The notes below the pieces were generated by a model. That model searched no databases. It saw nothing but the letters and a program-made list of their open reading frames with translations, and was not told the origin of the DNA. The translations under genes were made by a program, and so were the position numbers. From Thermobifida cellulosilytica TB100 (lineage in GTDB: Bacteria; Actinomycetota; Actinomycetes; Streptosporangiales; Streptosporangiaceae), in contig NZ_KQ950182.1 in NCBI RefSeq assembly GCF_001517975.1, positions 406,169 to 470,168 of the forward strand: 64,000 nt of DNA, given 5' to 3'. Every line of letters begins with the position of its first letter. Within the stretch, counting starts at the first letter, position 1. Below are positions 11,996 to 60,304 of this stretch, in pieces.

Positions 11996-12804
11996 TCGCC
12001 GAGACCGTCCTCTCCGGTTCCCTCCTCCTCGCCGTCCCGCTGGCCGCGGCGGCCGGACTGGTCTCCTTCCTGTCCCCGTGCGTGCTGCCGCTGGTGCCCG
12101 GATACCTGTCCTACGTGACCGGGTTGACCGGGGCCGACATCGCCGCGCACAGCCGGGGGGAGGTCCGGGAGGACGCGGGCGACGGCACCGTGCGGACCGT
12201 CACGGTCGACGACCTCATGGTCTCCCGGCGCTGGACCATGCTCGCCGGGAGCCTGCTGTTCATCGCGGGCTTCAGCGCGGTCTTCGTGTCCGTCGGCGTG
12301 TTCGTCGGCGGCGTCGGCGGGCTGCTGCTCGACCACTCCGAAACCATCACCCGCGTGCTCGGCGCGCTGACGGTCGTCCTGGGCCTGGCGTTCATGGGGC
12401 TCCTCCCCGGCTTCAACCGCGAGTTCCGCATCCACCGGCTGCCCGGAGCCGGACTGGCCGGGGCCCCGCTGCTGGGCGTGCTGTTCGGCCTGGGGTGGAC
12501 CCCGTGCATCGGGCCGACGCTGGCCGCCGTGCAGTCCCTGGCGTTCATGGAGGGCAGCGTCGGCCGGGGGGCGCTGCTGTCGCTGAGCTACTGCCTGGGC
12601 CTGGGCCTGCCGTTCGTCCTGGCCGCCCTGCTCTACCGCAGGGCGCTGGGCGCCTTCGCCTGGGTCAAACGCCACTACCGGCTCGTCACCGCCGCGGGCG
12701 GCGCGATGCTGGTCGTGGTGGGGCTGCTCCTGGTCACCGGTCTGTGGACCGGTGTCACCGCCGTCATGCAGGGCTGGACCGCGAACTTCACAACGGTGAT
12801 CTAG
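11992..12804 (+). CDS. ccdA: Cytochrome c biogenesis protein CcdA
   Basis: Integral membrane thiol transporter, 270 aa, DsbD-family. It passes reducing equivalents from cytosolic thioredoxin to ResA. About six hydrophobic helices are visible. The redox cysteines sit in [20 protein letters not shown] (helix 1) and [10 protein letters not shown] (middle helix), the standard pair. The GTG start overlaps the lipoprotein stop. A charged loop after helix 1 is longer than in minimal CcdA proteins. The resB gene starts 2 bases after its stop. Confidence 0.94.
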
Positions 12805-47528: not shown

Positions 47529-48074
47529 TGAGATCGCCGACCTCCTAAAGAAGTCGCCGCGCCGGACGCGGCGGCTTGGGGTTACCTCAGTCTCACCGTG
47601 GCGAGGGGTGGCTGGTTCGTCACGGCTGGGTCGCTGTCCCAGGGCGGTGGTGCCACCCCGGTGCGGCGGTCGGCGGCCCTTCAGTGGCCGCACTCGCCTC
47701 CAAGCTCCGGGGAAGAAGCCTACGCGCACCCGGGACAGGGACACGTCACAGGGTTGGCTGGGGACATTGGACCAGGTGGGAGCAATCGCCCTCCCGGAAG
47801 CGCCCCCGGCGTCAGGAGCGACACAGACCGCCGTTGATGCGGAGCAGGTCCACGTGCCACCGCCGAGCCAGGGCGCACCCGCTACTGGAGCGGTGAGTAG
47901 TGAAGGTCACAGGCAAACTATAGATGATCATAGTTTGCGGGCCTGGGGGTGGGGTGGGGTGATACGGGCCTCCCCGGCCCGTCCCGGGGAACGCCGGGAC
48001 CGGGTCCGGACGTTGGTCACGGTGTACCGACCGGGCAGGTGGACCGGGCCTTACGGGCATGGAGGGGAGTGGGC
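47529..48074. other. Divergent intergenic region, korA and htpX-like
   Basis: A 546-base gap with no supported gene. It must hold the korA promoter on the minus strand and the protease promoter on the plus strand. Its clearest element is the A/T-rich inverted repeat at 47913-47938. Confidence 0.4.
47913..47938. promoter_or_regulatory. A/T-rich inverted repeat, putative operator
   Basis: GCAAACTAT (47913-47921) and ATAGTTTGC (47930-47938) are perfect inverted repeats with an 8-base spacer. They lie 137 bases before the protease start. The A/T content and half-site spacing suggest a dimeric repressor site rather than a terminator. Confidence 0.55.
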
Positions 48075-48968
48075 GTGCGGCACAACGCGTTCCGCGCGGC
48101 AGCGCTCGTGGTCGGTCTCTCCATACTTCTGATCGTCCTGGGCTGGATGTGCGGAGGGATCACCGGGGTCAAGCTGGGGCTGGTCGTCGTCGCCGTCGTC
48201 AACGGCCTCATCTACCTCTTCGGCGACACCATGGCGCTGCGGGCGATGCACGCCCGCCCGGTCAGCGAGATCGAACAGCCCGAGTTGTACCGGATCGTCC
48301 GGGAGATCGCCACCGACGCACGGCAGCCCATGCCACGGCTGTACCTGTCGCCGACCAGGGCGCCCAACGCCTTCACCACCGGGTGGAACCGGCGGCGCGC
48401 CGCCCTGTGCTGCACCACCGGGCTGCTCTCCCTGCTCGACGAGCGCGAGCTGCGCGGCGTCATCGCCCACGAACTCGTCCACCTGCGCAGGGGCGACACC
48501 GTCGTGGGCACGGTCGCCGCGATGCTCGCGCTGAGCATCACGTCCCTCACCGCGCTGTCCCTGCTGCTCCCCCTGGCCGACTCCGAGGACGAGGACGGGC
48601 AGGGGCTGCTGGAAGGGCTGATCTTCCTCGCGGTCGGCCCCCTCGCCGCGGCGGTCGTCCGGGCCGCGGTCGGCCGCGCGCAGGAGTTCGCGGCCGACGA
48701 GGCCGCCGCCCGCCTCACCGGGGACCCCGTCGGCCTGGCCAACGCCCTGCACCGGATCGAGGTCGCGGCCCGCACCCACCCCCTGCCGACCCACCGGGGG
48801 CTGCTCACCTCGGGGCACCTGATGATCGCCCACCCCTTCGCCGACCAGTTGGCGGGACGGCTCTTCACCGTCCACCCGCCCGCCCGGGAGCGGATCCGCC
48901 GCCTCCAGGACCTGGCCGCGCGGTGGAACCGCGGCGGGCCGGGCGGGGGGCCGGACGGACGCCGGTGA
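48075..48968 (+). CDS. htpX: HtpX-like M48 zinc metalloprotease
   Basis: 297-aa membrane protease, likely for quality control of membrane proteins. Two N-terminal helices (AALVVGLSILLIVLGWMCGG, LVVVAVVNGLIYLFGDTMAL), then the zinc motif HELVH in GVIAHELVHLRRGD, two more hydrophobic stretches, and the third zinc ligand in EFAADEAAARLTGD. PNAFTTGWN and the C-terminal HPPARERIRRLQ are typical. The GTG at 48075 follows GGAGGGGAG. Confidence 0.92.
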   Translation: MRHNAFRAAALVVGLSILLIVLGWMCGGITGVKLGLVVVAVVNGLIYLFGDTMALRAMHARPVSEIEQPELYRIVREIATDARQPMPRLYLSPTRAPNAFTTGWNRRRAALCCTTGLLSLLDERELRGVIAHELVHLRRGDTVVGTVAAMLALSITSLTALSLLLPLADSEDEDGQGLLEGLIFLAVGPLAAAVVRAAVGRAQEFAADEAAARLTGDPVGLANALHRIEVAARTHPLPTHRGLLTSGHLMIAHPFADQLAGRLFTVHPPARERIRRLQDLAARWNRGGPGGGPDGRR

Positions 48969-48990
48969 CCCGGCACGCCCCGACAGCGAC

Positions 48991-49051
48991 GGGCGCGCGG
49001 CCCGAGGGGCGGCGCGCCCGGTCGGCGGTCCGGCTCCGGCGGGGCCGGACC
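48991..49051. terminator. Two hairpins between htpX-like and yajQ
   Basis: GGGCGCGC (48991-48998) pairs with GCGCGCCC (49012-49019), and GGTCCGGC (49027-49034) with GCCGGACC (49044-49051). They separate two convergent genes and may terminate one each. Confidence 0.6.
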
Positions 49052-49055
49052 GCGG

Positions 49056-49553
49056 TCAGCGGAAGTTGACGAACTGCAGCGCCACGTCCAGGTCGCTGTT
49101 CTTCAGCATGGCGATGACCGCCTGGAGGTCGTCCTTCTTCTTGGAGCTGACCCGCAGCTCGTCGCCCTGGATCTGCGCCCGGACGCCCTTGGGGAACTCC
49201 TCCCGGATCATCTTGGAGATCTTCTTGGCGTTCTCGGTGCTGATGCCCTCCTTGAGGGCGATCGGCAGCCGGTACTCCTTGCCCGACGCCTTCGGCTCGT
49301 CGGGGGCGTCCAGGACCTTCAGCGAGACGCCGCGCTTGACCAGCTTGTCCTTGAACACGTCGAGCGCGGCCTTGGCGCGCTCCTCGGAGGTGGACCTGAT
49401 CTCCACCGCGTGGTCGCCGGCCCAGGCGATGGTCGTGCCCGTCCCCTTGAAGTCGAAGCGCTGCGACAGTTCCCGACCGGCCTGGTTGACCGCGTTGTCC
49501 ACCTCCTGCCGGTCGAGTTTGGAGACGATGTCGAAGCTGGATTCGGCAGCCAC
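49056..49553 (-). CDS. YajQ family cyclic-di-nucleotide-binding-like protein
   Basis: 165 aa, the full YajQ family (UPF0234). [39 protein letters not shown] and [15 protein letters not shown] are family hallmarks. Some proteobacterial members bind cyclic di-GMP; in actinobacteria the role is not settled. The GTG at 49553 ([10 protein letters not shown]) is the natural start. Confidence 0.93.
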
Positions 49554-49788
49554 GTCTGCTCGCACCCCCAAGTTCCTGGGCCGGGGACGCCTGGTCCGGC
49601 CGATGGATCGCGATCGGTCGTGACCGGGGCGGCGGTACACCGCGGCCCCGGCCACAGCAGTGACAGAGCTTAGCCCGGTACGCCCGGAGAGGCCGTGGAG
49701 CCGGGAGAGCCGGTGTCCGATTTCGCCTCCGCGCCGCTGTCCGCTATTCTCATTCATGCGCGACGCCGAAGAGCGGAACGCACCACAA

Positions 49789-49870
49789 GGCAGGTTGCCC
49801 GAGCGGCCAAAGGGAGCAGACTGTAAATCTGCCGGCTCAGCCTACGTAGGTTCGAACCCTACACCTGCCA
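49789..49870 (+). tRNA. tRNA-Tyr (GTA)
   Basis: Class II cloverleaf, 82 bases. The acceptor GGCAGGT pairs with ACCTGCC; the anticodon loop CTGTAAA gives GTA; there is a long variable arm; the T-loop is GGTTCGAACCC. CCA is not encoded. It stands alone. Confidence 0.96.
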
Positions 49871-49878
49871 CACCTCGC

Positions 49879-49923
49879 AGAAGCGGCCTTCCACCAGGGG
49901 AAACCCTGCGGAAGGCCGCTTCT
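49879..49923 (+). terminator. Terminator of tRNA-Tyr
   Basis: AGAAGCGGCCTTCC (49879-49892) pairs perfectly with GGAAGGCCGCTTCT (49910-49923) 9 bases after the tRNA, followed by a short TCGTCGT stretch. Confidence 0.75.
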
Positions 49924-50043
49924 CGTCGTCCCGGGCTCCCGGCCGGACTTCACCAGAGGATGACCCGGTCTTGGGTTAGCCCGAAGCCTCCCCGGACGCA
50001 GGCTTCCAGAGAGGGAAGCAGCACACGACTCCGGGAGGCCGCC

Positions 50044-50760
50044 GTGACCCTCCAGGAAGAACTCGTCCGCGCCATCGAACACCGCGACGTCGAGGCGGTG
50101 CTCGCCACGTTCGACGAGGAGGCCGACTACGAGCTCGTCGACCGCACCAGCCCGCCGAGCGAACCGCTGCGGGCGCACGGCCGCGACGCCATAGGCAGGA
50201 CGCTGCACGACCTCTTCGACCGGGCCGTCCGCAACGAGGTCGAGCAGTTCGTCGTCCAGGGCGACCACGCCGCCTACCTCCAGCGGTGCACCTACCCCGA
50301 CGGCTCCCAGGCCCTGATCACGGCCATGCTCGACCTGCGCAGCGGCAGGATCGTGCACCAGTCCGGCATCCGGGCCCGCGACGGCGGCACCTCCGCGCCG
50401 GTGAGGACCCGCACGCGCACCTTCGCCGAGGCCGACGAGGTCCGCACCTTCGAGAAGGGCCGCCTGGAACTGCTCCGCGGCAACGGAAGCGACGTCGCCC
50501 GCGCCGTCTTCGAACCGGGCTGGCGCTGGTCGCGCCACGTCAAACCGATCGCCGGAACCGAACTGTGCACCTACGCGCACTTCTGCTACATCCTCTCCGG
50601 CACGCTCCACGTCCGGATGGCCGAGGGCAGCGAGTTCGAGGCGACGAAGGACGAGACGATCCGCATCGCGCCGCACCACGACGCCTGGGTGGTCGGCGAC
50701 GAGCCCGTGACCCTCCTCGACTGGGAGACATCGGGCGATTACGCCAGGTCACAGGGCTGA
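50044..50760 (+). CDS. SnoaL-like and cupin two-domain protein
   Basis: 238 aa. Residues 1-115 are an NTF2/SnoaL-like fold (VRAIEHRDVEAVLATFDEEA, GRDAIGRTLHDLFDRA). Residues about 135-235 are a cupin beta-barrel (FEPGWRWSRHVKPIAGTELC, YILSGTLHVRM, IRIAPHHDAWVVGDEP). The cupin metal site appears partly kept (His and Glu around the barrel). Enzymatic or sensory role unknown. The GTG start follows GGGAGG; it could be GTG further in. Separate from the following Jet locus by a hairpin. Confidence 0.75.
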   Translation: MTLQEELVRAIEHRDVEAVLATFDEEADYELVDRTSPPSEPLRAHGRDAIGRTLHDLFDRAVRNEVEQFVVQGDHAAYLQRCTYPDGSQALITAMLDLRSGRIVHQSGIRARDGGTSAPVRTRTRTFAEADEVRTFEKGRLELLRGNGSDVARAVFEPGWRWSRHVKPIAGTELCTYAHFCYILSGTLHVRMAEGSEFEATKDETIRIAPHHDAWVVGDEPVTLLDWETSGDYARSQG

Positions 50761-50773
50761 TGGGCCCGAAAAA

Positions 50774-50805
50774 CCGTTTCCTGGGGCCCGGTCCGGGAGA
50801 AACGG
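50774..50805. terminator. Hairpin between the cupin gene and the Jet locus
   Basis: CCGTTTC (50774-50780) pairs with GAAACGG (50799-50805), with a G/C-rich centre that can fold further. It probably ends the cupin transcript. Confidence 0.45.
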
Positions 50806-50897
50806 CATGTCACCGCGCGGATTTCCGGGTCGGAGCGAGTCAGATCTCAGGGGATTCGGGACGCAGCAGGACCGGGAGGTCTCTAGTCTGCTGAGGT

Positions 50898-51662
50898 GTG
50901 GGTGACTCAGTGATCCGGGAGCCGACGGGCCGCCGCGCGCAGACGCGGCACGGGCGGGCCGCCGTGCTCAGGCTGGCCTCCTGGTTCGAGCAGGCCGACG
51001 CCGACACCGCACACCGGCTCTACACCGCCGCCTTCGCCCTCCACCCCGCCCGGCACCTGGGCGGGAGCGTGGAGGAGAACGTCGCGGCGGCCTCCAGTTG
51101 GTGGGACGCCCCGGCCGTCGACACCTCGACGGTGCGGCCGGCGGGCCACGGCACGCTCGCCCCGGCCGAGAACCACAGCGCCCAGCAGGCACGGCTCCGC
51201 GACGCCGCCGAGGCCGAGGCCCACTGGCGGCGCTCCGCCGCCGACGAGGTGCGCTCCCTGCTGGCCGGCCTGACCCCCCGGGCCGGTCGGCTCACCATGT
51301 CCCGGGCCGCCCTGGGCGTGTTCATGGAGCTCCTCACCCGTGCGCTCGGGTCCGGCGACGCCACCTCCGGTCCGGTCAGCGCGGGCGACCTGGAACTCGA
51401 CATCCGACTGCACGTGCGCCACGACCCCGGCGCCGTCCTCACCATCGGCGAGGACGACGGCGACCTCACCCTCACCGGGCTGCGGCTGCGCACCACCCCC
51501 TACGACCGGACCGACCCCGGCCCGGACGGACCGGAAGAGGAGGACGGCCCCGACCGGGACGACGAGGAAGAACAGGACACCGCGCCGCAAGCCGGGGCGG
51601 ACGACCTCCGGGAGGCCGCGGACCCGGCGGCCGACGCCGTGCCGGACGTCCCCGAATCCTGA
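50898..51662 (+). CDS. JetA-like DUF2397 (TIGR02677) protein, N-terminally truncated
   Basis: 254 aa, where the DUF2397 family is usually about 450-500. Residues 15-190 match the C-terminal half of the family: VLRLASWFEQADADTAHRLY, AFALHPARHLGG, SSWWDAPAV and the helical AQQARLRDAAEAEAHWRRSA. The N-terminal winged-helix half, the MukF/kleisin-like part that would bind the SMC, is absent, and the 137 bases upstream do not encode it. A long acidic tail (GPEEEDGPDRDDEEEQ) follows. In type III Wadjet systems this is JetA. GTG 50898 or 50910 may start it. Probably non-functional or repurposed. Confidence 0.7.
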   Translation: MGDSVIREPTGRRAQTRHGRAAVLRLASWFEQADADTAHRLYTAAFALHPARHLGGSVEENVAAASSWWDAPAVDTSTVRPAGHGTLAPAENHSAQQARLRDAAEAEAHWRRSAADEVRSLLAGLTPRAGRLTMSRAALGVFMELLTRALGSGDATSGPVSAGDLELDIRLHVRHDPGAVLTIGEDDGDLTLTGLRLRTTPYDRTDPGPDGPEEEDGPDRDDEEEQDTAPQAGADDLREAADPAADAVPDVPES

Positions 51663-51726
51663 CCGCACCCGTGCCAGAATCCCCCAAGCACGCCCCACCC
51701 ACCAGTCAGGAAGGTGACGCCAGACC

Positions 51727-52938
51727 GTGGCCGCCAAGGAGGACATCGCCCTCACCATCGAGCGCCAGGCCGCGGCCCGCCGACTGCTGGCGGACCCGCT
51801 CATCACCGCACGCAGCCACCCCGAGGACCTCGCCCTCGTCCAGGCCCACTCCGACTGGCTCGTCCGGCGGTTCCGGCGGGTCCTCGGCTACGAACTGGTC
51901 GTCGCCGACGACTACGCCCGGCTGGTGAAGACCGGGCTGGTCCGCACCGTCACCACCCCGCTCCACCGGGACAGCGGGGCGCCGTTCACCCCCCGCGCCT
52001 ACACCTACCTGACCCTGACCCTCGCGGCCCTCGCCGAGGCCGACGCCCGCACCACCGTCGCCGAGCTGGCCGCCGGGGTGCGCGCCGCGGCCCGCGACGC
52101 CGGACTCTCCCTCGACCCCGAGCAGCGCCTGGGCGAGCGCCGGGCCTTCGTCGCCGGCCTTGCCCGGCTCGTCGGCTGGGGGGCGCTCACCGAGGCCGAC
52201 GGCAGCCTGTCCGACTACGCCGTGGACGGCACCCGCGAGGTCGTCCTGGACGTCAACCACGGGATCGCGGAGCACGTGCTCGCCCGCGTACCGCACTCCA
52301 CCACCACCCCCGAGGAGTTCGTCGCCCTGGCCCAGAGCGACTCGGTCTCCTCCGACGAGCACGCCGTGGAGCTCACCCTGCGCCGCCTCCTCGCCGAGAC
52401 CGCGGTGGTCTACCGGGAGGAACTGGACACCCCGCACCGCGTCCGGTTGGCCGGACACCAGTGGCGCGCCGCAGCGGAACTCGCCGAACTCCTCGGCTGC
52501 GACACGGAGGTCCGGGCCGAGGGGGTGGCCCTGATCATGCCGAGCGAGACCGCCGCGGACGCCCGCGGGGTGACCGGCCCCGCCTCCTTCCCCGGCACCG
52601 GCCCGGTCAGCCAGGCCGCCCTCACCCTGCTGTCCCGCCTCGCCACCATGCTCGCCCCACCACCGTTCAGCCACGCGGTCCCCATCCCGGCCGACCTGCT
52701 CGACGCGGAACTGGCCGCCGTCGTCGACGACGACGCCCGGCAGTGGTCGCGCACCGCGGTCAGCCACGTCCCCGACCCCGAGGACCTCGCCGCCCGCGTG
52801 CTGACCCTGCTCCGCGACAGCCGGCTGCTGGACCGCGTCGCCACGGACGGCGCAGAACGCCCCACAGAGGGCTGGCACCTGCTGGCCGCCGCCGCACGCT
52901 ACCGCGACTCCGCCTTCCCCCGGAGCGGTGCCGAATGA
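51727..52938 (+). CDS. JetB-like DUF2398 (TIGR02678) protein
   Basis: 403 aa, full length. The N-terminus IERQAAARRLLADPLITARS, then LVQAHSDWLVRRFRRVLGYEL and TPRAYTYLTLTLAALAEAD are characteristic of DUF2398, the MukE-like (JetB) subunit of type III Wadjet. QWSRTAVSHVP and the C-terminal GWHLLAAAARYRD also fit. GTG start. It is followed by a 50-residue ORF that overlaps its stop by ATGA. Confidence 0.88.
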   Translation: MAAKEDIALTIERQAAARRLLADPLITARSHPEDLALVQAHSDWLVRRFRRVLGYELVVADDYARLVKTGLVRTVTTPLHRDSGAPFTPRAYTYLTLTLAALAEADARTTVAELAAGVRAAARDAGLSLDPEQRLGERRAFVAGLARLVGWGALTEADGSLSDYAVDGTREVVLDVNHGIAEHVLARVPHSTTTPEEFVALAQSDSVSSDEHAVELTLRRLLAETAVVYREELDTPHRVRLAGHQWRAAAELAELLGCDTEVRAEGVALIMPSETAADARGVTGPASFPGTGPVSQAALTLLSRLATMLAPPPFSHAVPIPADLLDAELAAVVDDDARQWSRTAVSHVPDPEDLAARVLTLLRDSRLLDRVATDGAERPTEGWHLLAAAARYRDSAFPRSGAE

Positions 52939-53087
52939 ACGGGCACGGCACGACCCCCGTCCACACGACGGCCGGGAGCCTCCCGATCGGCTCCCCCATC
53001 CGGGACAATGACACCACCCCCGACGCCCCGACCGTCCGGCGCGGCGGGCACCAGGACGAGCGGTACGGAGCGGAGGACCGCCGATGA
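52935..53087 (+). CDS. Small 50-residue ORF bridging jetB-like and jetC-like genes
   Basis: ATG 52935 overlaps the JetB-like stop (ATGA) and its TGA 53085-53087 overlaps the JetC-like ATG 53084 (ATGA again). The product starts MNGHGTTPVHTTAGSL and is hydrophilic, with no recognisable domain. Third codon positions are about 94 percent G/C (47 of 50), well above first and second positions, the pattern of real genes here. It could be a true small subunit, a translational-coupling ORF, or a decayed piece. I do not know a homologue. Confidence 0.5.
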   Translation: MNGHGTTPVHTTAGSLPIGSPIRDNDTTPDAPTVRRGGHQDERYGAEDRR

Positions 53088-56000
53088 GACAGGACGCCAC
53101 CCTCCCCAAGCGCTACCGGCTCGAACGTGCCGGCATCCACAACGTCTGGCAGTACGACAACCACGTCTTCGAGTTCGCCGACGGGCGCCTGCTGCTGCGC
53201 GGGCGCAACGGAGCGGGCAAGTCCAAGGCGCTGGAGATGCTGCTGCCCTTCCTCCTCGACGGGGACGCCCGGCGGCTCGACACCACCGGCACCAGCCGCA
53301 CCAGCCTGCGCTGGCTGATGCTGGAGGGACGCACCGCCACCGAGACCGGGACCGCCGCCGCCACCGAGTCCGACACCGCCACCCTCGGCTACCTGTGGAT
53401 CGAGTTCGTCCGCCGCGGAGAGGACGGCCGGCCCCAGTACCGCACCCTCGGCGCCGCCGTCATCGCCGTGCCCGACCAGCCCGAGGCGCGCGCGGTGTTC
53501 TTCGTCACCGACCGCCGCGTCGGCGACGACCTCGTCCTGATCGACGGCGACCGCCCGCTGTCCGTGGAGCGGCTGCGTTCCGCCGTCGGCCCCGACAACT
53601 GCTACGACACCGCCCTCGGCTACCGCACCAGGGTCATGCGCGAGCTGTTCGGCCTCGACGACCCCATGCGGTACCGCAACCTCATCCACCTGCTCTACCG
53701 GCTGCGCCGCCCCACCGTCGGGGAACGCCTCGAAGCGGGCGAGCTCGCCTCCGTGCTCTCCGAGGCGCTGCCCCCCATGGACGACACCGTCCTCGACCAG
53801 GTCGCCCGCAACATCACCGACCTGGAGAGCGCCCGCTCCCGGCTGGCCGCGCTGCGCACCGTGCACGAGCGCACCACGGAGTTCCTCGCCGACTACCGCG
53901 GCTACCTGCACGGGGTGCTGCGCCGCCAGGCCGAGACCGTGCGCGCCCAGATCACCGCCTTCGAGGAGCGCGACACCGAACTCGCCCGCCTGGAGTCCGA
54001 ACTCGACTCCCTGGTCTCCGCCGAGAGCAGCATCCAGGTGGAGCGCGACCGCCTCGCGCGCAGCCGCGACACCGCGGCGTCCGACGCCGCGACGCTCCAC
54101 GCGAGCACCGAGCGCCCGGCCGGGGGCGTCACCGACGGGGAGCGCGAGGCCCGCTACGCCGCCGCGGCCGCCTACATCCGCGCCGCCGAGGCCGCCTGGG
54201 TCGCCGGCGAGCACGCCCGCTCCGCCGAGGCCCAGGCCCACCACAGGCTGGACACCGACACCGCGGCCATCGAACGCGGCATCGGCGGCCTGCGCCGCCT
54301 CCACCTCGGCCTGCGCGACACCGCGCGCGCCGGCGGGATCGACCCCGCCTCCCTCGGCGAGGTCCCGCAGCCGGTACGCGTCACCCTCGCCCCGCGGGAG
54401 AGCACCACCCAGGTCAACCTGGAAGGGCTCGAACAGCCCGTGGAGCGCCCGCCCGTGCTCGGCATCGAGATCGTCGGCCTCCGCCGCAGGCTGGCCGAAC
54501 TCCACGACCGCCTCTCGGGCGCCGACGCGGCCGCCGCCGAACGCGAGGCGATCGCCGAGGACCTGTACCGCCGCGCCCTGGAACTGGAGGCGGCCGAACG
54601 CCGCGAGGCCGACCTCAACAGCGAGGCCGAGTGGGCCGACAGCCACGCCGAACGCGCCCGCGCACGCGAGCGCGCCGCCATCGAGAAGGTCCGCGAGGCC
54701 AGCGCCGACTACGCCGCCGACGTGCGCGAGTGGTGCAACGCCCTGCGCGCCGCGGCACCCGACGCCGACATCGAGGCGGAGCTGGAGGCCCTGGAGCAGA
54801 GCGTGGAACCCCCGCTCGACGACGCCTTCCGTGTCCTGCCCGCCACCCTCCCCGAGACCGTGGCCCGCCGGGCCCACGCCATCGTCGAGCCGCTGCTGGA
54901 ACAGGTGCGCGAGGCCCGCGACGCCGCCTTGGGCGAGGAGCGCGACCTCGCCGCCGAACTCGACGAGCTCACCGAGCGCCGGGCCGACGAGACCACGCCC
55001 GTCACCGCCCCCCGACCGTTCTGGGCCACCGCGCCGCGCGACCCCGACGCGGGGATCCCCCTCTACCTGGCGGTCGACTTCGCCGAGCGGCTCACCGCCG
55101 AGGAGCGCGCCGGACTCGAAGCCGCCCTGGAGGCGTCCGGGCTCCTGGCCGGACTCATCACCCCCGACGGCACCGTCGTCGACCAGGACACCCACGACCT
55201 GCTGCTCAGCCCGGTCGAACCGCTGCGCGGCCGCACCCTCCTGGACGTCCTGGTCCCCCTGGAGACCGTCGGCGCCACGAAGGTCGACCGCGGCACCGTC
55301 ATCGCGATCCTCTCCTCGATCCGCCTGCGCGACGAGGAGCAGGAGCAGAACCAGCCCGAGCACTCCTGGTTCCAGAGCACCACCGGCCCCCGGCGCAGAC
55401 CGGAGAACTACGTCTCCCTCGACGGGCGCTGGCGGCTCGGCGTCGCCCAGGGCCGCCACCACAAGGCCGCCGCCGAGTACATCGGGGAGGCGGCCCGCGC
55501 CCAGGCCCTGGAACGCCACCGCGCCAAGGCCGAGCGGCGCATCGAGATGGCCGAGGCGCTGCTCGCCGAGGCCCAGGAGCGCCGCGCGGGGATCGACAAC
55601 CGCCACGAGAGCCTGCTGCGGATCAACCGGTCGGTGCCCTCGGGCGCCGCCCTCACCGCGGCCTGGGCCGTCCTGGACGACGCCCGCGCCTGGCTGGCCG
55701 AGGCGGTGCGCGACCACGCCGCGGCCCGCGCCGCCGCCGACGCCGCGCGCGCCACCGCGCTGTCCCTGCGCGGCGCCCTCGTCGGACCCGCGCTGGAGCA
55801 CCGCCTGCCCGCCCAGTACGAGGAGCTCGCCCGGATCCGCGGCTCCCTGGGGGCGCTGCGGGTGCAGATCGCGGCGGCCCACCGCGACCTGGAGATCCTC
55901 GCCGGACGGCTGGAGGACTACCGGCGGCACGTCGCCGACTGGCAGCGCGCCCGCGAGGCCCGCATCGTCGCCGAGGACGCGGCCGGGGCCGCCATCAGCG

Positions 56001-57427
56001 ACATGATCACCGTGCGGCGCGAGACCGAGCTGACCGACCGCGCCGGGGCCGCCGACCCGGCCCAGGTCAGGGCCGCGATCGAGCAGGTGCGCGCCCGCGC
56101 CCGCGAGGCGGGGGAGGCCCTGCCCGCCCTGGAGCGCGAGGCCCAGCGCGCCCGTGACGAGCGGGTCGCCGCGGAGACCCGGCACGGTGCGGCCGCCGTC
56201 GAGCGGGCCGAGCAGGCCCGCCGGGCGCTGGCCGCCGGGGCCCGCCTGCGGGCCCTGCTCGCGACCCCGTCCGGGGAGGTCGACCGGGGACTCCTGGCCG
56301 CGGCCGGGCTCACCGACCTCGCCGCACCGGAGGGCCCCATCGCCGACTACGACGCGGCGGAGGCCGACCCCGAGCGCAGCGACGACTTCACCAAGCGCAT
56401 CCAGAGCCTCGACGCGCTGGTCTCCGCGGTCGAGGCCGGGCTCGACCCGGCCGACTCCGACGTCGACGACAGCGGGATCCTGCACAGCCACGAGGAGCTG
56501 CACCGCAGCCTGGCCGCCGCGCCCGCCGTCGGCGCCCGCACCGAGCTCACCGAGCCCGCGGGGGTCAAGCGGGTCACCGTCCACGACGACCGGGGGGCGC
56601 ACGACATCGTCGACTACGCCGAGCGGCTGAGCGAGGCGATCGCCGAGGCCGAGGAGACCGCGGCGGTGCGCGAGGAGGAGGCCTACGAGCGGCACCTCCT
56701 CGGCGAGCTCGCCGGGCACCTCTCCCGCCAGATCACCGAGGCGCGGGAGCTCATCGACGCGATGAACAGCGTCCTGGGCGAGGTCACCACCTCCCAGGGA
56801 CTGGGCGTCCGCCTGGAGTGGCAGCTCGCCCCCGACGCCGACGAGGACATCCGCGCGGTGGTGCCGCTGCTGAGCCGCCCCGCCGACACGCGCACCCGGG
56901 TCGAGGCCACCCGGCTGCGCGACGCCCTGCGCCGCTGCATCGAGGCGATCCGCCGCCTCGACCCCACGGTCACCGGCGGGGCCCAGTTGCGCGCCGCCCT
57001 GGACTACCGGTCCTGGTTCGCCTTCACCGTCTACGTCACCGACGCCGCCCACCCCGAACGCGAGCGCCGGCTCACCCACCGCACCGCACTCAGCCAGGGG
57101 GAGCAGCGGGTCATCGCCTACCTGGTGCTGTTCGCCGCGGCGGCGGCCCAGTTCACCGCGCTGGCCCTGGACGCCCCGCAGACCCCGCGGCTCATCCTGC
57201 TCGACGACGCCTTCGCCAAGGTGGACGAACCCACCCACGGCCGCCTGCTCGGCATGCTCGTGGAACTGGATCTGGACTTCGTGCTCACCTCTGAGCGTGT
57301 CTGGGGCTGCTTTCCGAGCGTCCCCCGGCTCAATATCTATGAATGCCTGCGCGACCCGGCCGAACCCGGGATCGCCACCCTGCACTTCACCTGGGACGGC
57401 AACCGGCGCCGTCTCAATGGAGTGTGA
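53084..57427 (+). CDS. JetC-like SMC ATPase (TIGR02680)
   Basis: 1447-aa MukB/SMC-like ATPase. Walker A is GRNGAGKS (40-47) after the N-terminal LPKRYRLERAGIHNVWQYDN. Long Ala/Glu/Arg-rich coiled coils occupy most of the middle. The ABC signature ALSQGEQR (about 1335) and Walker B LILLDDAFAKVD (about 1369) are intact, and the tail FVLTSERVWGCFPSVP is family-specific. In Wadjet, JetC with JetA and JetB extrudes DNA loops and senses small circular plasmids. The frame is intact and codon-biased. Only the partner genes are damaged or missing. Confidence 0.9.
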   Translation: MRQDATLPKRYRLERAGIHNVWQYDNHVFEFADGRLLLRGRNGAGKSKALEMLLPFLLDGDARRLDTTGTSRTSLRWLMLEGRTATETGTAAATESDTATLGYLWIEFVRRGEDGRPQYRTLGAAVIAVPDQPEARAVFFVTDRRVGDDLVLIDGDRPLSVERLRSAVGPDNCYDTALGYRTRVMRELFGLDDPMRYRNLIHLLYRLRRPTVGERLEAGELASVLSEALPPMDDTVLDQVARNITDLESARSRLAALRTVHERTTEFLADYRGYLHGVLRRQAETVRAQITAFEERDTELARLESELDSLVSAESSIQVERDRLARSRDTAASDAATLHASTERPAGGVTDGEREARYAAAAAYIRAAEAAWVAGEHARSAEAQAHHRLDTDTAAIERGIGGLRRLHLGLRDTARAGGIDPASLGEVPQPVRVTLAPRESTTQVNLEGLEQPVERPPVLGIEIVGLRRRLAELHDRLSGADAAAAEREAIAEDLYRRALELEAAERREADLNSEAEWADSHAERARARERAAIEKVREASADYAADVREWCNALRAAAPDADIEAELEALEQSVEPPLDDAFRVLPATLPETVARRAHAIVEPLLEQVREARDAALGEERDLAAELDELTERRADETTPVTAPRPFWATAPRDPDAGIPLYLAVDFAERLTAEERAGLEAALEASGLLAGLITPDGTVVDQDTHDLLLSPVEPLRGRTLLDVLVPLETVGATKVDRGTVIAILSSIRLRDEEQEQNQPEHSWFQSTTGPRRRPENYVSLDGRWRLGVAQGRHHKAAAEYIGEAARAQALERHRAKAERRIEMAEALLAEAQERRAGIDNRHESLLRINRSVPSGAALTAAWAVLDDARAWLAEAVRDHAAARAAADAARATALSLRGALVGPALEHRLPAQYEELARIRGSLGALRVQIAAAHRDLEILAGRLEDYRRHVADWQRAREARIVAEDAAGAAISDMITVRRETELTDRAGAADPAQVRAAIEQVRARAREAGEALPALEREAQRARDERVAAETRHGAAAVERAEQARRALAAGARLRALLATPSGEVDRGLLAAAGLTDLAAPEGPIADYDAAEADPERSDDFTKRIQSLDALVSAVEAGLDPADSDVDDSGILHSHEELHRSLAAAPAVGARTELTEPAGVKRVTVHDDRGAHDIVDYAERLSEAIAEAEETAAVREEEAYERHLLGELAGHLSRQITEARELIDAMNSVLGEVTTSQGLGVRLEWQLAPDADEDIRAVVPLLSRPADTRTRVEATRLRDALRRCIEAIRRLDPTVTGGAQLRAALDYRSWFAFTVYVTDAAHPERERRLTHRTALSQGEQRVIAYLVLFAAAAAQFTALALDAPQTPRLILLDDAFAKVDEPTHGRLLGMLVELDLDFVLTSERVWGCFPSVPRLNIYECLRDPAEPGIATLHFTWDGNRRRLNGV

Positions 57428-57594
57428 GATCGGCCACTTCTTCTGCCGGTTGGGGCGGTGGAGGCGGACCGTGGAGGCAACGCGCGAACGGACCTGTTCC
57501 ACCGCGCGGATCCCCGCAGCCGAACGGGGAGAGCGATGTGTAATTCGCCCTATCTGTCCTAATCTGCAAAGGCGAGGCCACGAACGGAGCAGGT

Positions 57595-59679
57595 GTGGTG
57601 ACGACGGTAACGACCTCCCAGGCCGGATTCTCGGCAGAACCCTCGCGGCAGCGGTCGGCGTCCCCCCGAACAGTTGCCCTCTGGGACCGGTTGGCCCGCT
57701 CGCCCCTGGACCCCGCGGCGCGCCGGTGGGTGGCCGCGGCCGTCCACGGCGAGGACGCGCTGGCCGCCTGCGTCCGGGGCGAGGAGGTCGACCTGCCGCT
57801 CCCGGAGACCGAACCGGTCCCGCCGGTGCGGCACGCCCGGCGCTGCTACCTCAGCAGAGTCCGCGTCCAGGGCTTCCGCGGCATCGGACGCGCCGCCACC
57901 CTGGAGTTCCCGCCCGGCCCCGGGCTGACCGTGATCGTCGGCCGCAACGGGTCCGGCAAGTCCAGCTTCGCCGAGGCCGTCGAGGCCGCGCTGACCGGCC
58001 GCAACCTCCGCTGGGACGGCATGCCCGCCGCCTGGCGCGACGGCTGGCGCAATCTCCACTTCGACGATGTGACCGAAATCACGGTCGAGCTCCAGCGGGC
58101 GGGGGAGACCGGCACCACCCGGGTCACCCGGGTCTGGACCGGCGAGAGCGTCCGCTCCGCCCGGGGCGAGGTGGTCCTGCCCACGGGCGAGGTCGGCAGC
58201 CTGGCCAGCCTCGGCTGGGGCGAGGACCTCAACCGGTACCGGCCCTTCCTCTCCTACGACGAGCTGGGCCGCACCGTCACCGGGCGCTCGGCCGAGCTGT
58301 ACGACACGCTGACCACGCTGCTGGGCCTGAGCGAGCTCACCGAGATCGAACGTCGGCTGGCCAAGGCCTGCGACCGGCTCGCCAAGACCGCGCAGCGCCC
58401 CGCCCACGACCTGCCCTACCTGCTGGACCAACTGCGCGCCAGCGCCGACCCGCGGGCGCGCACCGCCGTCGAGCTGCTGTCCTCCTCGACGCTGGACCTC
58501 GACCGGCTCGCCGCGATCGCCGCGGACAACGGCCCCGCCGACCCCGCCCAGCAGGTCGTGCTGCGCCGCCTGCGCCGCCTGTCGGTGCCCGAGCGCTCCC
58601 TCATCAACGACGTGGTCAGCGAGCTGCGCGGGGCCGCGATGGAGATCGCCATGACCGTGGGCACCAAGGGCGACCGGGCGCGCAGCGTGGTCGAGCTGCT
58701 GCGCCAGGCCCTCGAGCACCACCAGCGGCACCCCGCCGAGACCGACTGCCCCACCTGCGGCGCCCACAACGCCCTGGGACCGGCCTGGGCGAGCCGGGCC
58801 CGCGCCGAGATCGCCCGGCTGGAGCCCGTCGCCGCCAGCACCGCGGCCGCCTACCAGCGCGCCGAGGCGGCCCGGGACCAGGCCCGCTTCCTGATGGCCC
58901 CGCCGCCCTCCTGGCTGCCGCCCGACAGCGAACTGGGGCGGATCTGGGCCGACTGGGCGGCCGGGGCGGAGATCACCGACCTGACCGAACTGGCCACGCA
59001 CATCGAGACCGTCGGCCGGCGGCTGCGCTCGGCCGCGATCGCCGCACGCAAGGCCGCCACCGAACGCCTCACCGACCCCACCGACGGGTGGGCCGGGCTC
59101 GCCGAGCAACTGGGCGCCTGGCTGGAGGACGCCCGCGGGGCGCTCGACGCGCACCGGAGGCTGGAGCCGGCCCGCCAGGCCCTCGACTGGTTCTCCTCGG
59201 TGGCCCGCGAGATGCGCGCCGAGCGGTTGAACCCCCTGGCCGCCCAGGCGGAGAAGGTGTGGGCGCGGCTGCGCCAGGAGCGCCACATCGACCTGGCGTC
59301 GCTGCGCCTGGTGGGCCGGGGGGCGCAGCGACGGGTGGCCGTCGACGTCAGCGTGGAGGGCATCGACGGGCCGGACAACGCGCCCGGACTGCTCAGCCAG
59401 GGCGAGTTCCAGGCCCTCGCCCTCTCCATCTGCCTGCCGCGCACCCTGGTGCCGGGCAACCCGTTCGGCTTCCTGCTGCTGGACGACCCCGTCCAGGCGA
59501 TGGACACCGAGACCGTGGAAGGGCTGGCCGCGGTGCTGGCCGAGGTGGGCCGCCACCGCCAGCTCGTCGTCTTCACCCACGACACCCGCCTGCCCGACGC
59601 GCTGCACCGGCTCGGCCTCCCGGCGTCCGTCCGGACCATCCACCGCGACGCCATGTCCAACGTCTGGGTGACGGACTGA
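57595..59679 (+). CDS. RecF/SbcC-like AAA ATPase with CxxC motif
   Basis: 694 aa. The N-terminal VRVQGFRGIGRAATLEF and Walker A GRNGSGKS (116-123) are SMC/RecF-type. Middle helices carry CPTCG at about 384-388, like a zinc hook, but the coiled coil is short. The C-terminus has LSQGEFQALALSICLPRTL (signature near 600), Walker B FLLLDDPVQAMD (about 627) and VVFTHDTRL. It starts at GTG 57595 (or 57598), 167 bases after the JetC-like gene. Similar ATPases occur alone in actinobacteria, so membership in the Jet locus is unproven. It contains no nuclease domain that could replace JetD. Confidence 0.78.
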   Translation: MVTTVTTSQAGFSAEPSRQRSASPRTVALWDRLARSPLDPAARRWVAAAVHGEDALAACVRGEEVDLPLPETEPVPPVRHARRCYLSRVRVQGFRGIGRAATLEFPPGPGLTVIVGRNGSGKSSFAEAVEAALTGRNLRWDGMPAAWRDGWRNLHFDDVTEITVELQRAGETGTTRVTRVWTGESVRSARGEVVLPTGEVGSLASLGWGEDLNRYRPFLSYDELGRTVTGRSAELYDTLTTLLGLSELTEIERRLAKACDRLAKTAQRPAHDLPYLLDQLRASADPRARTAVELLSSSTLDLDRLAAIAADNGPADPAQQVVLRRLRRLSVPERSLINDVVSELRGAAMEIAMTVGTKGDRARSVVELLRQALEHHQRHPAETDCPTCGAHNALGPAWASRARAEIARLEPVAASTAAAYQRAEAARDQARFLMAPPPSWLPPDSELGRIWADWAAGAEITDLTELATHIETVGRRLRSAAIAARKAATERLTDPTDGWAGLAEQLGAWLEDARGALDAHRRLEPARQALDWFSSVAREMRAERLNPLAAQAEKVWARLRQERHIDLASLRLVGRGAQRRVAVDVSVEGIDGPDNAPGLLSQGEFQALALSICLPRTLVPGNPFGFLLLDDPVQAMDTETVEGLAAVLAEVGRHRQLVVFTHDTRLPDALHRLGLPASVRTIHRDAMSNVWVTD

Positions 59680-59791
59680 GGGGCGGTGATCGCCTCCGCG
59701 GCTTTCGAGTTGGCAGAGCACCCCGGAAGGCATGTATATTCGAGTCAACGCGACGGGCGGAACCCCGAAAGGGGGGAAGCCAAGGAAGCGT

Positions 59792-59867
59792 GCCCCTTTA
59801 GCTCAGTCGGCAGAGCGTCTCCATGGTAAGGAGAAGGTCTACGGTTCGATTCCGTAAAGGGGCTCCA
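59792..59867 (+). tRNA. tRNA-Thr (GGT)
   Basis: 76 bases including an encoded CCA. The acceptor GCCCCTT pairs with AAGGGGC; D-arm GCTC-GAGC; anticodon stem TCTCC-GGAGA with loop ATGGTAA giving GGT; T-arm TACGG-CCGTA. Confidence 0.96.
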
Positions 59868-59981
59868 CCACCACCTTGAATGAGATCCGGTCCACTCAGG
59901 TGGTCGGTCGGCGGGAAGCTCGCCCGCCGGTCCTCTCGGGGTCCGGTATCATCGCAGATGAGACGGTTTCCCCGACTCCAA

Positions 59982-60054
59982 GGCGGAGTAGCTCAGTCGG
60001 TAGAGCAAGCGGCTCATAATCGCTGTGTCGTCGGTTCAAGTCCGGCCTCCGCTA
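59982..60054 (+). tRNA. tRNA-Met, elongator (CAT)
   Basis: 73 bases. The acceptor GGCGGAG pairs with CTCCGCT (one G-U at the end); anticodon loop CTCATAA gives CAT; T-arm GTCGG-CCGGC with TTCAAGT. The stem lacks the three G-C pairs of an initiator, so this is the elongator type. CCA is not encoded. rpmG follows, a common actinobacterial order. Confidence 0.93.
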
Positions 60055-60060
60055 CTACCT

Positions 60061-60100
60061 GCGCGAACCCCTGGTATCCAGGGCTCACGCGGGCTTTTTT
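60061..60100 (+). terminator. Terminator of tRNA-Met
   Basis: CCCTGG (60069-60074) and CCAGGG (60078-60083) form the inner stem, with CGCG on both sides extending it, followed by six T (60095-60100). Confidence 0.8.
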
Positions 60101-60139
60101 CAGTGTCCGTTGCTGTTCAGTCGAGAAAGGCACTCCAAC

Positions 60140-60304
60140 GTGGCTGCCACCGACGTGAGGCCGAAGATCACCCTGGCCTGCCAGGAGTGCAAGCACCGTA
60201 ACTACATCACGCGCAAGAACCGTCGGAACACCCCCGACCGCCTTGAGCTGAGGAAGTACTGCCCGAACTGCCGCACGCATCGGGAGCACAAGGAAACCCG
60301 CTAG
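60140..60304 (+). CDS. rpmG: Ribosomal protein L33
   Basis: 54-aa large-subunit protein. [20 protein letters not shown] and [15 protein letters not shown] show both CxxC pairs, so it is the zinc-binding (C+) form. This matters because the zinc-free paralogue usually sits in a Zur regulon; here a constitutive gene is expected. GTG start with AGAAAGG at ideal spacing. Confidence 0.97.

What the first reader, a model, noticed from the sequence alone, without database searches (positions are those of the whole stretch)
50898..57427. Incomplete type III Wadjet-like SMC locus
Seen: a DUF2397-like gene keeping only its C-terminal half, a full DUF2398-like gene and a full TIGR02680-like SMC ATPase with intact Walker and signature motifs. 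Known: in Wadjet (JetABCD), JetABC are SMC-kleisin-KITE components and JetD (DUF2399/Toprim-type) cuts the DNA; type III uses these DUF families. Here no JetD is encoded within the window and the JetA N-terminus is gone. Yet JetB- and JetC-like genes have no stops or frameshifts and strong codon bias. Either it decayed recently, or a JetD-free complex has been kept for another task such as chromosome or plasmid handling.
Basis: partly seen in the sequence, partly recalled or inferred. Interest (0 to 1): 0.82.

Follow-up and report, generated by a model that had tools for sequence, protein, structure and literature searches.

The report
Nuclease-free Wadjet relative with second ATPase
A bacterial machine normally used to destroy foreign plasmids has, in one group of actinobacteria, lost its DNA-cutting part and half of another part, gained a Rad50-like neighbour, and been kept at one fixed chromosomal place, which suggests that a defence system was turned into a permanent cellular tool.

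Summary
In detail: C-terminal part of JetA (DUF2397), whole JetB (DUF2398), whole JetC (TIGR02680), no JetD in the window. It is type II, not type III. The decay reading fails; 'kept for another task' is strongly supported. The four genes recur in one order and strand in 37 of 45 loci from Thermobifida, Nocardiopsis and allied genera; seven of the other eight are cut by contig ends. All 45 sit just before tRNA-Thr/tRNA-Met; no JetD was found in any. The ATPase is in 40 of 40 genomes of one Nocardiopsis genus. 26 of 54 carrier genomes have no DUF2399 match. The short JetA starts 7-9 bases after a -10-like box in each of 54 loci read, so the truncation is old and in use. A sister lineage at the same spot keeps full-length JetA, without JetD and with the ATPase inverted: an intermediate. 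I read this as a domesticated, nuclease-free, Wadjet-II-derived SMC complex. Its job (chromosome/DNA maintenance or non-cutting defence) is inferred, not shown.

The parts
50884..50897 (+). Conserved start region of the short jetA: -10-like box TAGTCT (50884-50889), then 8 bases to the GTG start; probable leaderless promoter
   Evidence: TANNNT before the start in all 22 distinct start regions (19 at exactly 8 bases; the other three read by eye as 9) and at 7-8 bases in 27 of 27 short-JetA loci; background 57 of 22052 ATG/GTG for exactly the 8-base offset. That the transcript is leaderless is inferred.
50898..51662 (+). short JetA (kleisin): C-terminal part of DUF2397 only, 254 aa
   Evidence: start residues GDS or near it in the 12 orthologues; model matches C-terminal residues 384-495 of 9qe0 JetA, Z 6.2, rmsd 4.1, 111 aligned
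51727..52938 (+). JetB (KITE), DUF2398, full length, 403 aa
53084..57427 (+). JetC (SMC ATPase), TIGR02680, full length, 1447 aa; Walker A GRNGAGKS, signature LSQGE, Walker B LILLDDAF
57595..59679 (+). fourth gene: Rad50/RecF/LmuB-like ATPase, 694 aa, Walker A GRNGSGKS, CPTC hook (Cys385, Cys388), LSQGE, LLLDDP, FTHD
   Evidence: Foldseek best matches Rad50, Smc, Lamassu LmuB, JetC
49789..49871 (+). tRNA-Tyr, left border of the interval
   Evidence: also seen left of the genes in many carriers and beside YajQ in 11 of 11 non-carriers
59792..60055 (+). tRNA-Thr (59792-59867) and tRNA-Met (59982-60055), right border
   Evidence: downstream of the ATPase in 45 of 45 close loci

Best explanation
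The locus is a domesticated, nuclease-free SMC complex that descends from a type II Wadjet. SHOWN: JetD is absent, JetA is cut to its C-terminal part with its own conserved start site, JetB and JetC are intact, and a Rad50/LmuB-like zinc-hook-type ATPase sits where JetD would be. The set lies at one chromosomal place, its trees follow those of the flanking genes, and a sister lineage keeps an intermediate form. INFERRED: JetC dimers still bind and move DNA by ATP hydrolysis, with JetB and the JetA C-terminal winged helix on the SMC head. Without the kleisin N-terminus (which in MukBEF and type I Wadjet joins two motors) and without JetD, the complex acts as a single motor or clamp that cannot cut. 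The Rad50-like ATPase is its dedicated partner, perhaps sensing DNA ends or unusual DNA, or gating JetC. The likely task is chromosome or DNA maintenance alongside Smc-ScpAB.
For: 37 of 45 loci carry short jetA-jetB-jetC-ATPase in this order on one strand; seven of the other eight are cut by contig ends; no JetD found in any. ATPase in 40 of 40 genomes of one genus, Nocardiopsis by inference, 38 whole. Family draw of 250: 54 carriers at 933-1382 bits, the other 20 matching genomes at 512 bits or less; 26 of the 54 have no DUF2399 match. For 37 loci the JetC and ATPase trees agree (0 of 28 well-supported JetC splits contradicted, distance correlation 0.979) and follow flanking genes (0.931 and 0.919; JetC and flank share 21 of 34 splits, label shuffles mean 0.23, maximum 3). 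Intermediate: L121 (G085) holds full JetA (567 aa), JetB, JetC, no JetD, ATPase inverted, between the same tRNAs. Its JetC and its ATPase both fall outside the short-JetA clade with support 100 (IQ-TREE), and its JetC is nearer to that clade than the complete Wadjet of G029 is (88; 0.994). Conserved start of the short JetA. CxxC in 44 of 44. dN/dS below 1 in all four genes. ScpA present in 15 of 15 genomes, 14 of them carriers.
Against: No functional data. dN/dS of the short JetA is fairly high (0.30-0.63). In G085 the ATPase runs convergent to jetABC, and in N. endophytica it lies on another contig than JetC with no jetABC in 9.9 kb upstream, so the ATPase can stand apart. The branch order within the clade is not settled: G088 is basal in the JetC tree with 0.995 (FastTree) but only 61 (IQ-TREE), while the ATPase trees put it beside G147 (0.996 and 97), so exchange of one gene in that lineage is possible. 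Two of 19 well-supported flank splits are contradicted by each of the JetC and ATPase trees. The ATPase model is weak (pLDDT 67.7, pTM 0.36). In two of 40 genomes the ATPase is in pieces.
Confidence: 0.6

Rival explanations
1. It is still a defence system: JetABC senses or traps foreign circular DNA, and the Rad50/LmuB-like ATPase, alone or with a host nuclease, is the new effector arm, so that JetD is not needed.
For: The closest outside relatives of the ATPase (37-44% identity) look like defence genes where I scanned neighbours: N6 methylases and a helicase in L088, a GmrSD protein in L082. The best PADLOC matches of the ATPase are mad3 and LmuB. A type II Wadjet is the ancestor.
Against: Found in 40 of 40 genomes of one genus and at one place in all 45 loci read, with trees that follow the flanking genes; in the same genus DUF2399 is in only 12 of the 22 genomes of the family draw. 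The ATPase of the window lacks the C-terminal extension of about 140 aa (L093) and the small downstream gene (four of six outside loci listed) of its relatives. No separate nuclease domain was found in the four proteins (for the ATPase only 25 of 47 PADLOC families were shown).
Confidence: 0.25
2. JetABC and the ATPase are two unrelated relics that only share a stable interval between tRNA genes; each has its own task.
For: ATPase inverted in G085 and separated from JetC in N. endophytica; the two genes place G088 differently; the interval between tRNA-Tyr and tRNA-Thr varies in length in non-carriers.
Against: Same order and strand in 37 of 37 loci that hold all four; tree distances of JetC and ATPase agree better with each other than either does with the flanks; all 54 carriers of the ATPase have a DUF2397 match, though not each was shown to be the short one.
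Confidence: 0.15
3. It is a decaying Wadjet.
For: JetD and more than half of JetA are missing.
Against: Truncation shared across genera, Walker motifs and frames kept, conserved start site.
Confidence: 0.02
4. It works as a normal Wadjet that borrows JetD from the complete Wadjet elsewhere in the genome.
For: This genome has a complete type II Wadjet with JetD on contig C2.
Against: 26 of 54 carriers, among them the genome that matches T. fusca (G003), have no DUF2399 match.
Confidence: 0.03

Closest known systems
Wadjet type II (JetABCD; N. vireti nvJET, PDB 9qe0/9qe1)
   Same: DUF2397/DUF2398/TIGR02680 proteins; the window's JetC and the full-length JetA of this genome align to 9qe0; the short JetA model matches its C-terminal domain
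   Different: No JetD; JetA lacks its N-terminal part; extra Rad50-like ATPase; fixed chromosomal position
MksBEF / MukBEF condensins
   Same: SMC-kleisin-KITE complex with a chromosome role beside Smc-ScpAB (P. aeruginosa MksBEF, PMC7485682, abstract and passages seen)
   Different: Other protein families (here DUF2397/2398); that MksBEF has a full kleisin and no Rad50-like partner is recalled
Lamassu LmuB and Rad50/SbcC
   Same: The fourth gene has split SMC-type ATPase motifs, modelled helices between them and a CxxC hook; Foldseek matches to 7zr1 Rad50 and 9hqu LmuB
   Different: No LmuA/LmuC or Mre11/SbcD match among the families shown for the four proteins; it sits with a JetABC-type SMC complex instead

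Membership tests
Wadjet type II | JetB (DUF2398) and JetC (TIGR02680) with intact ATPase motifs | tested here: met
Wadjet type II | full-length kleisin JetA (DUF2397) | tested here: not met
   profile 294-481 of 483 only; N-terminal half absent by tblastn in window 48001-60000
Wadjet type II | JetD nuclease (DUF2399) in the operon | tested here: not met
   the genome's only DUF2399 match over the cut-off is on contig C2; no JetD by tblastn in the DNA held of 45 close loci
Wadjet type II | restriction of small circular DNA | not testable with these tools
   needs a plasmid assay
Wadjet type III | type III protein models | tested here: not met
   the 20 PADLOC families listed for JetA, JetB and JetC are 5 JetA2, 6 JetB2, 6 JetC2, 2 JetC1 and mad3; the PDB relative is titled Wadjet-II. 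That the library holds type III models is recalled.
Rad50/SbcC | SMC-type ATPase with CxxC zinc hook | tested here: met
   Walker A, LSQGE, LLLDDP, FTHD in the window's protein; both Cys in 44 of 44 loci. Zinc binding itself not tested.
Rad50/SbcC | Mre11/SbcD nuclease partner in the operon | tested here: not met
   no such family among the NCBIfam and Pfam hits of the four proteins; the operon is followed by tRNA genes
Lamassu | LmuB-like ATPase | tested here: inconclusive
   PADLOC LmuB E 1.4e-17 but mad3 scores better, E 2.6e-24
Lamassu | LmuA effector | tested here: not met
   no LmuA among the PADLOC hits listed for the four proteins (25 of 47 shown for the ATPase)
MksBEF/MukBEF | proteins of the MukF/MukE or type I Jet families | tested here: not met
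   JetA and JetB hit only DUF2397/DUF2398 models; JetC hits JetC1 only weakly, E 4.8e-12

The most novel reading that the evidence does not exclude
A new class of core bacterial SMC machine: a plasmid-cutting Wadjet was disarmed step by step (JetD lost and a Rad50-like zinc-hook ATPase beside it, then the kleisin N-terminus lost and a promoter fused to the remaining part) and became a vertically inherited two-ATPase complex, SMC plus Rad50-type, that maintains the chromosome in the Thermobifida-Nocardiopsis group. It would be an intermediate-bearing case of the proposed route from defence SMC complexes to chromosome condensins.
Probability: 0.45. Interest if true: 0.85.

Novelty: new variant of a known kind. 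Interest (0 to 1): 0.73.

Why it matters
A review speculates that Wadjet-like complexes gave rise to MukBEF and MksBEF condensins (PMC10586767, section 7 read). Here such a conversion may be followed with a complete ancestor-type locus (G029), an intermediate (G085) and the final form in many genera. A kleisin without its N-terminal part challenges the idea that an SMC ring must be closed by the kleisin from neck to cap, and a conserved pairing of a JetABC-type SMC with a Rad50-type ATPase would be a new architecture. It also shows that protein models for Wadjet can match where no nuclease exists.

Tried and rejected
Decay, JetD in trans and type III were tested and rejected (see rivals). Replacement of Smc-ScpAB was rejected: ScpA is present in 15 of 15 genomes checked. 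A split JetA with its N-terminal half encoded nearby was looked for by tblastn with residues 1-320 of the full JetA: none in window 48001-60000 or L122; L121 holds it as part of its full JetA; among the 45 loci one marginal hit (E 0.007, 48 aa, L076) lies beyond the downstream tRNAs and was judged chance. LexA-like palindromes upstream of jetA in 13 loci: none (in several of these the analysed start lay inside the gene, so the test is incomplete). The sigma-70 scan of 49750-60200 found no promoter, and its two terminator-like sites are both on the - strand; its consensus does not cover actinobacterial promoters. Whole-model Foldseek TM-scores of the ATPase are low (0.2-0.3), so only the fold class is used. 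L045 first looked like loss of JetABC; the genome holds JetC on another contig, 500 bp from its end. L077 (N. eucommiae) has broken frames in JetB, JetC and the ATPase; G279, the same record by its coordinates, has a listed completeness of 84%, so I read this as assembly error; not proven. The order 'G088 first' within the short-JetA clade, suggested, was dropped. Literature: the listings showed no title or abstract start about this locus, short DUF2397 proteins or a JetD-free type II Wadjet; (DUF2397, DUF2398, TIGR02680, TIGR02677) returned one unrelated paper. Only open-licence PMC texts were searched. Papers: PMC10586767 (passages and section 7), PMC10123090, PMC10512200, PMC12647877, PMC9927451, PMC12287153 and PMC7485682 (passages only).
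Full report
What is there. The window (G000:C3:406169-470168) holds, between tRNA-Tyr (49789-49871) and tRNA-Thr/tRNA-Met (59792-60055), four genes on the + strand: a 254-aa protein that matches only the last two fifths of DUF2397 (profile 294-481 of 483), a full DUF2398 protein, a full TIGR02680 SMC protein, and a 694-aa ATPase 167 bp further on. The profile of the short JetA itself hits that chain only at E 0.073.

The fourth gene. It has split SMC/Rad50-type ATPase motifs and a CPTC hook; both cysteines are kept in 44 of 44 loci read (L077 left out). The mean column identity of ten orthologues is 79%, against 58% for eleven short JetA proteins. Foldseek's best matches are Rad50, Smc, Lamassu LmuB and JetC, with low TM-scores from a weak model. 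The 35 outside relatives (L082-L116, 37-44% identity) have no JetABC by blastp in the DNA held. I listed neighbours for six of the 35 and scanned some neighbours of three with models: N6 methylases and a helicase in L088, a GmrSD protein in L082; the small gene tested in L082 and L093 has no Pfam or PADLOC match. In L093 the frame runs about 140 aa beyond the match (12007 to 12424), and in four of the six listed a gene of 118-147 aa follows; the window's ATPase has neither.

Spread and place. JetC orthologues with open frames and 59% identity or more occur in the three other genomes of the window's genus and in eight further genera of the 60 relatives searched. All 45 have tRNA-Thr and tRNA-Met just downstream. 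37 of 45 hold all four genes in order on one strand; seven of the other eight are cut by contig ends, and L045 has the ATPase without jetABC in 9.9 kb, JetC being on another contig of that genome. No JetD is found by tblastn in any of the 45. T. fusca contig NZ_BCWB01000037.1 has the length of G003:C37 (132,780), so the window's genus is Thermobifida by inference.

Core status. Of 250 genomes drawn from the family, 74 match the ATPase at E 1e-100 or better: 54 at 933-1382 bits and 20 at 512 or less. All 54 also have a DUF2397 match, while 26 of the 54 have no DUF2399 match at E 0.001 or better: G003, G013, G021, G026, G067, G068, G079, G081, G088, G105, G126, G131, G147, G151, G156, G165, G169, G173, G187, G197, G206, G227, G232, G237, G255, G264. 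All 40 held genomes of genus g67 have the ATPase, 38 in one piece; their chromosomal place was not read in all. The genus is Nocardiopsis by inference: G264:C2 and the record of L068 have the same length, 340,003. In that genus DUF2399 is in 12 of the 22 genomes of the family draw. Twelve genomes without the close ATPase were asked for YajQ and the neighbouring stretch of eleven was taken (2.7 to 20 kb, two cut by contig ends): all eleven have tRNA-Tyr beside YajQ; six show tRNA-Thr and tRNA-Met as well, 3-14 kb from tRNA-Tyr, and none has any Jet or ATPase match there. So the interval varies in the family and the module became fixed in one group.

Ancestry and intermediate. G085 (L121) holds at the same place a full-length JetA (567 aa, 49% identical over 444 aa to the full JetA of the window's genome), JetB, JetC, no JetD, and the ATPase in opposite orientation; its only DUF2399 match is a fragment in an 83-aa frame on another contig. 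In JetC trees of 26 proteins, the short-JetA clade of 17 is separated from G085 and the complete Wadjets with support 1.000 (FastTree) and 100 (IQ-TREE); G085 stands between that clade and the complete type II Wadjet of G029 (which has DUF2399 at C371:9339-9797) with 0.994 and 88. In the ATPase trees G085 also lies outside the clade (0.999 and 100). Within the clade the order is unsettled: G088, with the short JetA, is basal for JetC (0.995, but only 61 in IQ-TREE) and beside G147 for the ATPase (0.996 and 97). By parsimony JetD was lost and the ATPase was present before JetA was cut.

The truncated gene is in use. A TANNNT box lies before the GTG (or ATG) in all 22 distinct start regions (27 loci; 19 regions at exactly 8 bases, three read by eye as 9) and at 7-8 bases in 27 of 27 further short-JetA loci (a few are the same record as one or, and any in-frame start with 6-10 bases was allowed). 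Chance for exactly 8 bases is 57 of 22052 ATG/GTG. The residues after the start are GDS-like in the first set and mostly GLNQ-like in the second. The full-length jetA of L121 lacks the box. Eight loci without jetA on the contig (L045-L047, L052, L053, L055, L067, L073) could not be tested. I read this as a leaderless promoter fused to the shortened gene; that leaderless genes are common in actinobacteria is recalled. JetC Walker A and B are kept in 17 of 17 clade members; the signature was read in 14 of 17, as in G003, G026 and G067 the pattern caught an earlier stretch. NG86 dN/dS against five relatives is 0.16-0.29 for the ATPase, 0.23-0.51 for JetC, 0.28-0.49 for JetB and 0.30-0.63 for the short JetA, without stops; very high GC at third positions probably depresses dS, so I take these as upper estimates.

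Co-inheritance. For 37 loci with all markers, JetC and ATPase trees share 25 of 34 splits, none of 28 well-supported JetC splits is contradicted, and distances correlate at 0.979; each follows the flanking MurB/aminotransferase/MaoC tree (0.931, 0.919), with 2 of 19 well-supported flank splits contradicted in each case. Of 47 loci considered, L077 was left out beforehand for broken frames and nine lacked a marker, among them L121 and L122.

How it may work. The JetA that is left has a modelled long helix and winged helix (from about residue 92 to 207) matching residues 384-495 of Wadjet-II JetA (Z 6.2), the part that in SMC complexes sits on the SMC head (recalled). What is lost includes the kleisin N-terminus, by whose dimerisation two motors are linked in type I JetABC and MukBEF (PMC10586767 section 7). 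Without it and JetD a pair-of-motors cutter is unlikely. The JetC regions at 201-250 and 1201-1447 are its most conserved parts in the clade (0.80-0.89), so something may still bind the neck; the Rad50-like ATPase is a candidate, untested. Smc-ScpAB is present, judged by ScpA, so the complex would be an additional one, as MksBEF is beside SMC in P. aeruginosa (PMC7485682, abstract and passages).

Verdict. Shown: structure, conservation, intermediate, absence of JetD. Inferred: non-cutting function, partnership of the ATPase, chromosome or DNA maintenance role.

Noticed in passing
50884-50897 and same place in other loci: A nearly invariant start region fuses a TANNNT box directly to the short jetA start; looks like a leaderless promoter.
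   Followed up: yes
L082-L116: A broader family of Rad50/LmuB-like ATPases, mostly longer at the C-terminus; four of six listed are followed by a gene of 118-147 aa (two tested, no Pfam match), and methylases, GmrSD or a helicase adjoin in the two loci scanned: possibly an undescribed defence module.
   Followed up: partly
carrier genomes such as G079, G081, G105, G126, G147, G151: These have a second, strong DUF2397 match but no DUF2399 match: possibly another Wadjet variant with a divergent or missing JetD.
   Followed up: no
L143, L147-L151: The interval between tRNA-Tyr (next to YajQ) and tRNA-Thr/tRNA-Met is 3-14 kb in six relatives without the module: a possible integration hot spot.
   Followed up: partly
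L035 (G000:C2:612000-630000): The window's genome also has a complete ordinary type II Wadjet (JetA 537 aa, JetB, JetC, JetD about 423 aa from the start I chose), nearly identical in JetC to that of sister genome G002.
   Followed up: partly
L080: A record labelled Glycomyces fuscus carries the locus with Nocardiopsis-like sequence; the label may be wrong.
   Followed up: no
L045, G273: In N. endophytica the ATPase has other sequence upstream, and JetC lies on a separate contig, 500 bp from its end: insertion or rearrangement between jetC and the ATPase.
   Followed up: partly
L128 (G085:C1:1368308-1368511): A small DUF2399 fragment in an 83-aa frame, perhaps the remains of a JetD.
   Followed up: no
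G088, G147: JetC and ATPase trees place G088 differently (basal versus beside G147); perhaps exchange of one gene or a long-branch effect.
   Followed up: partly
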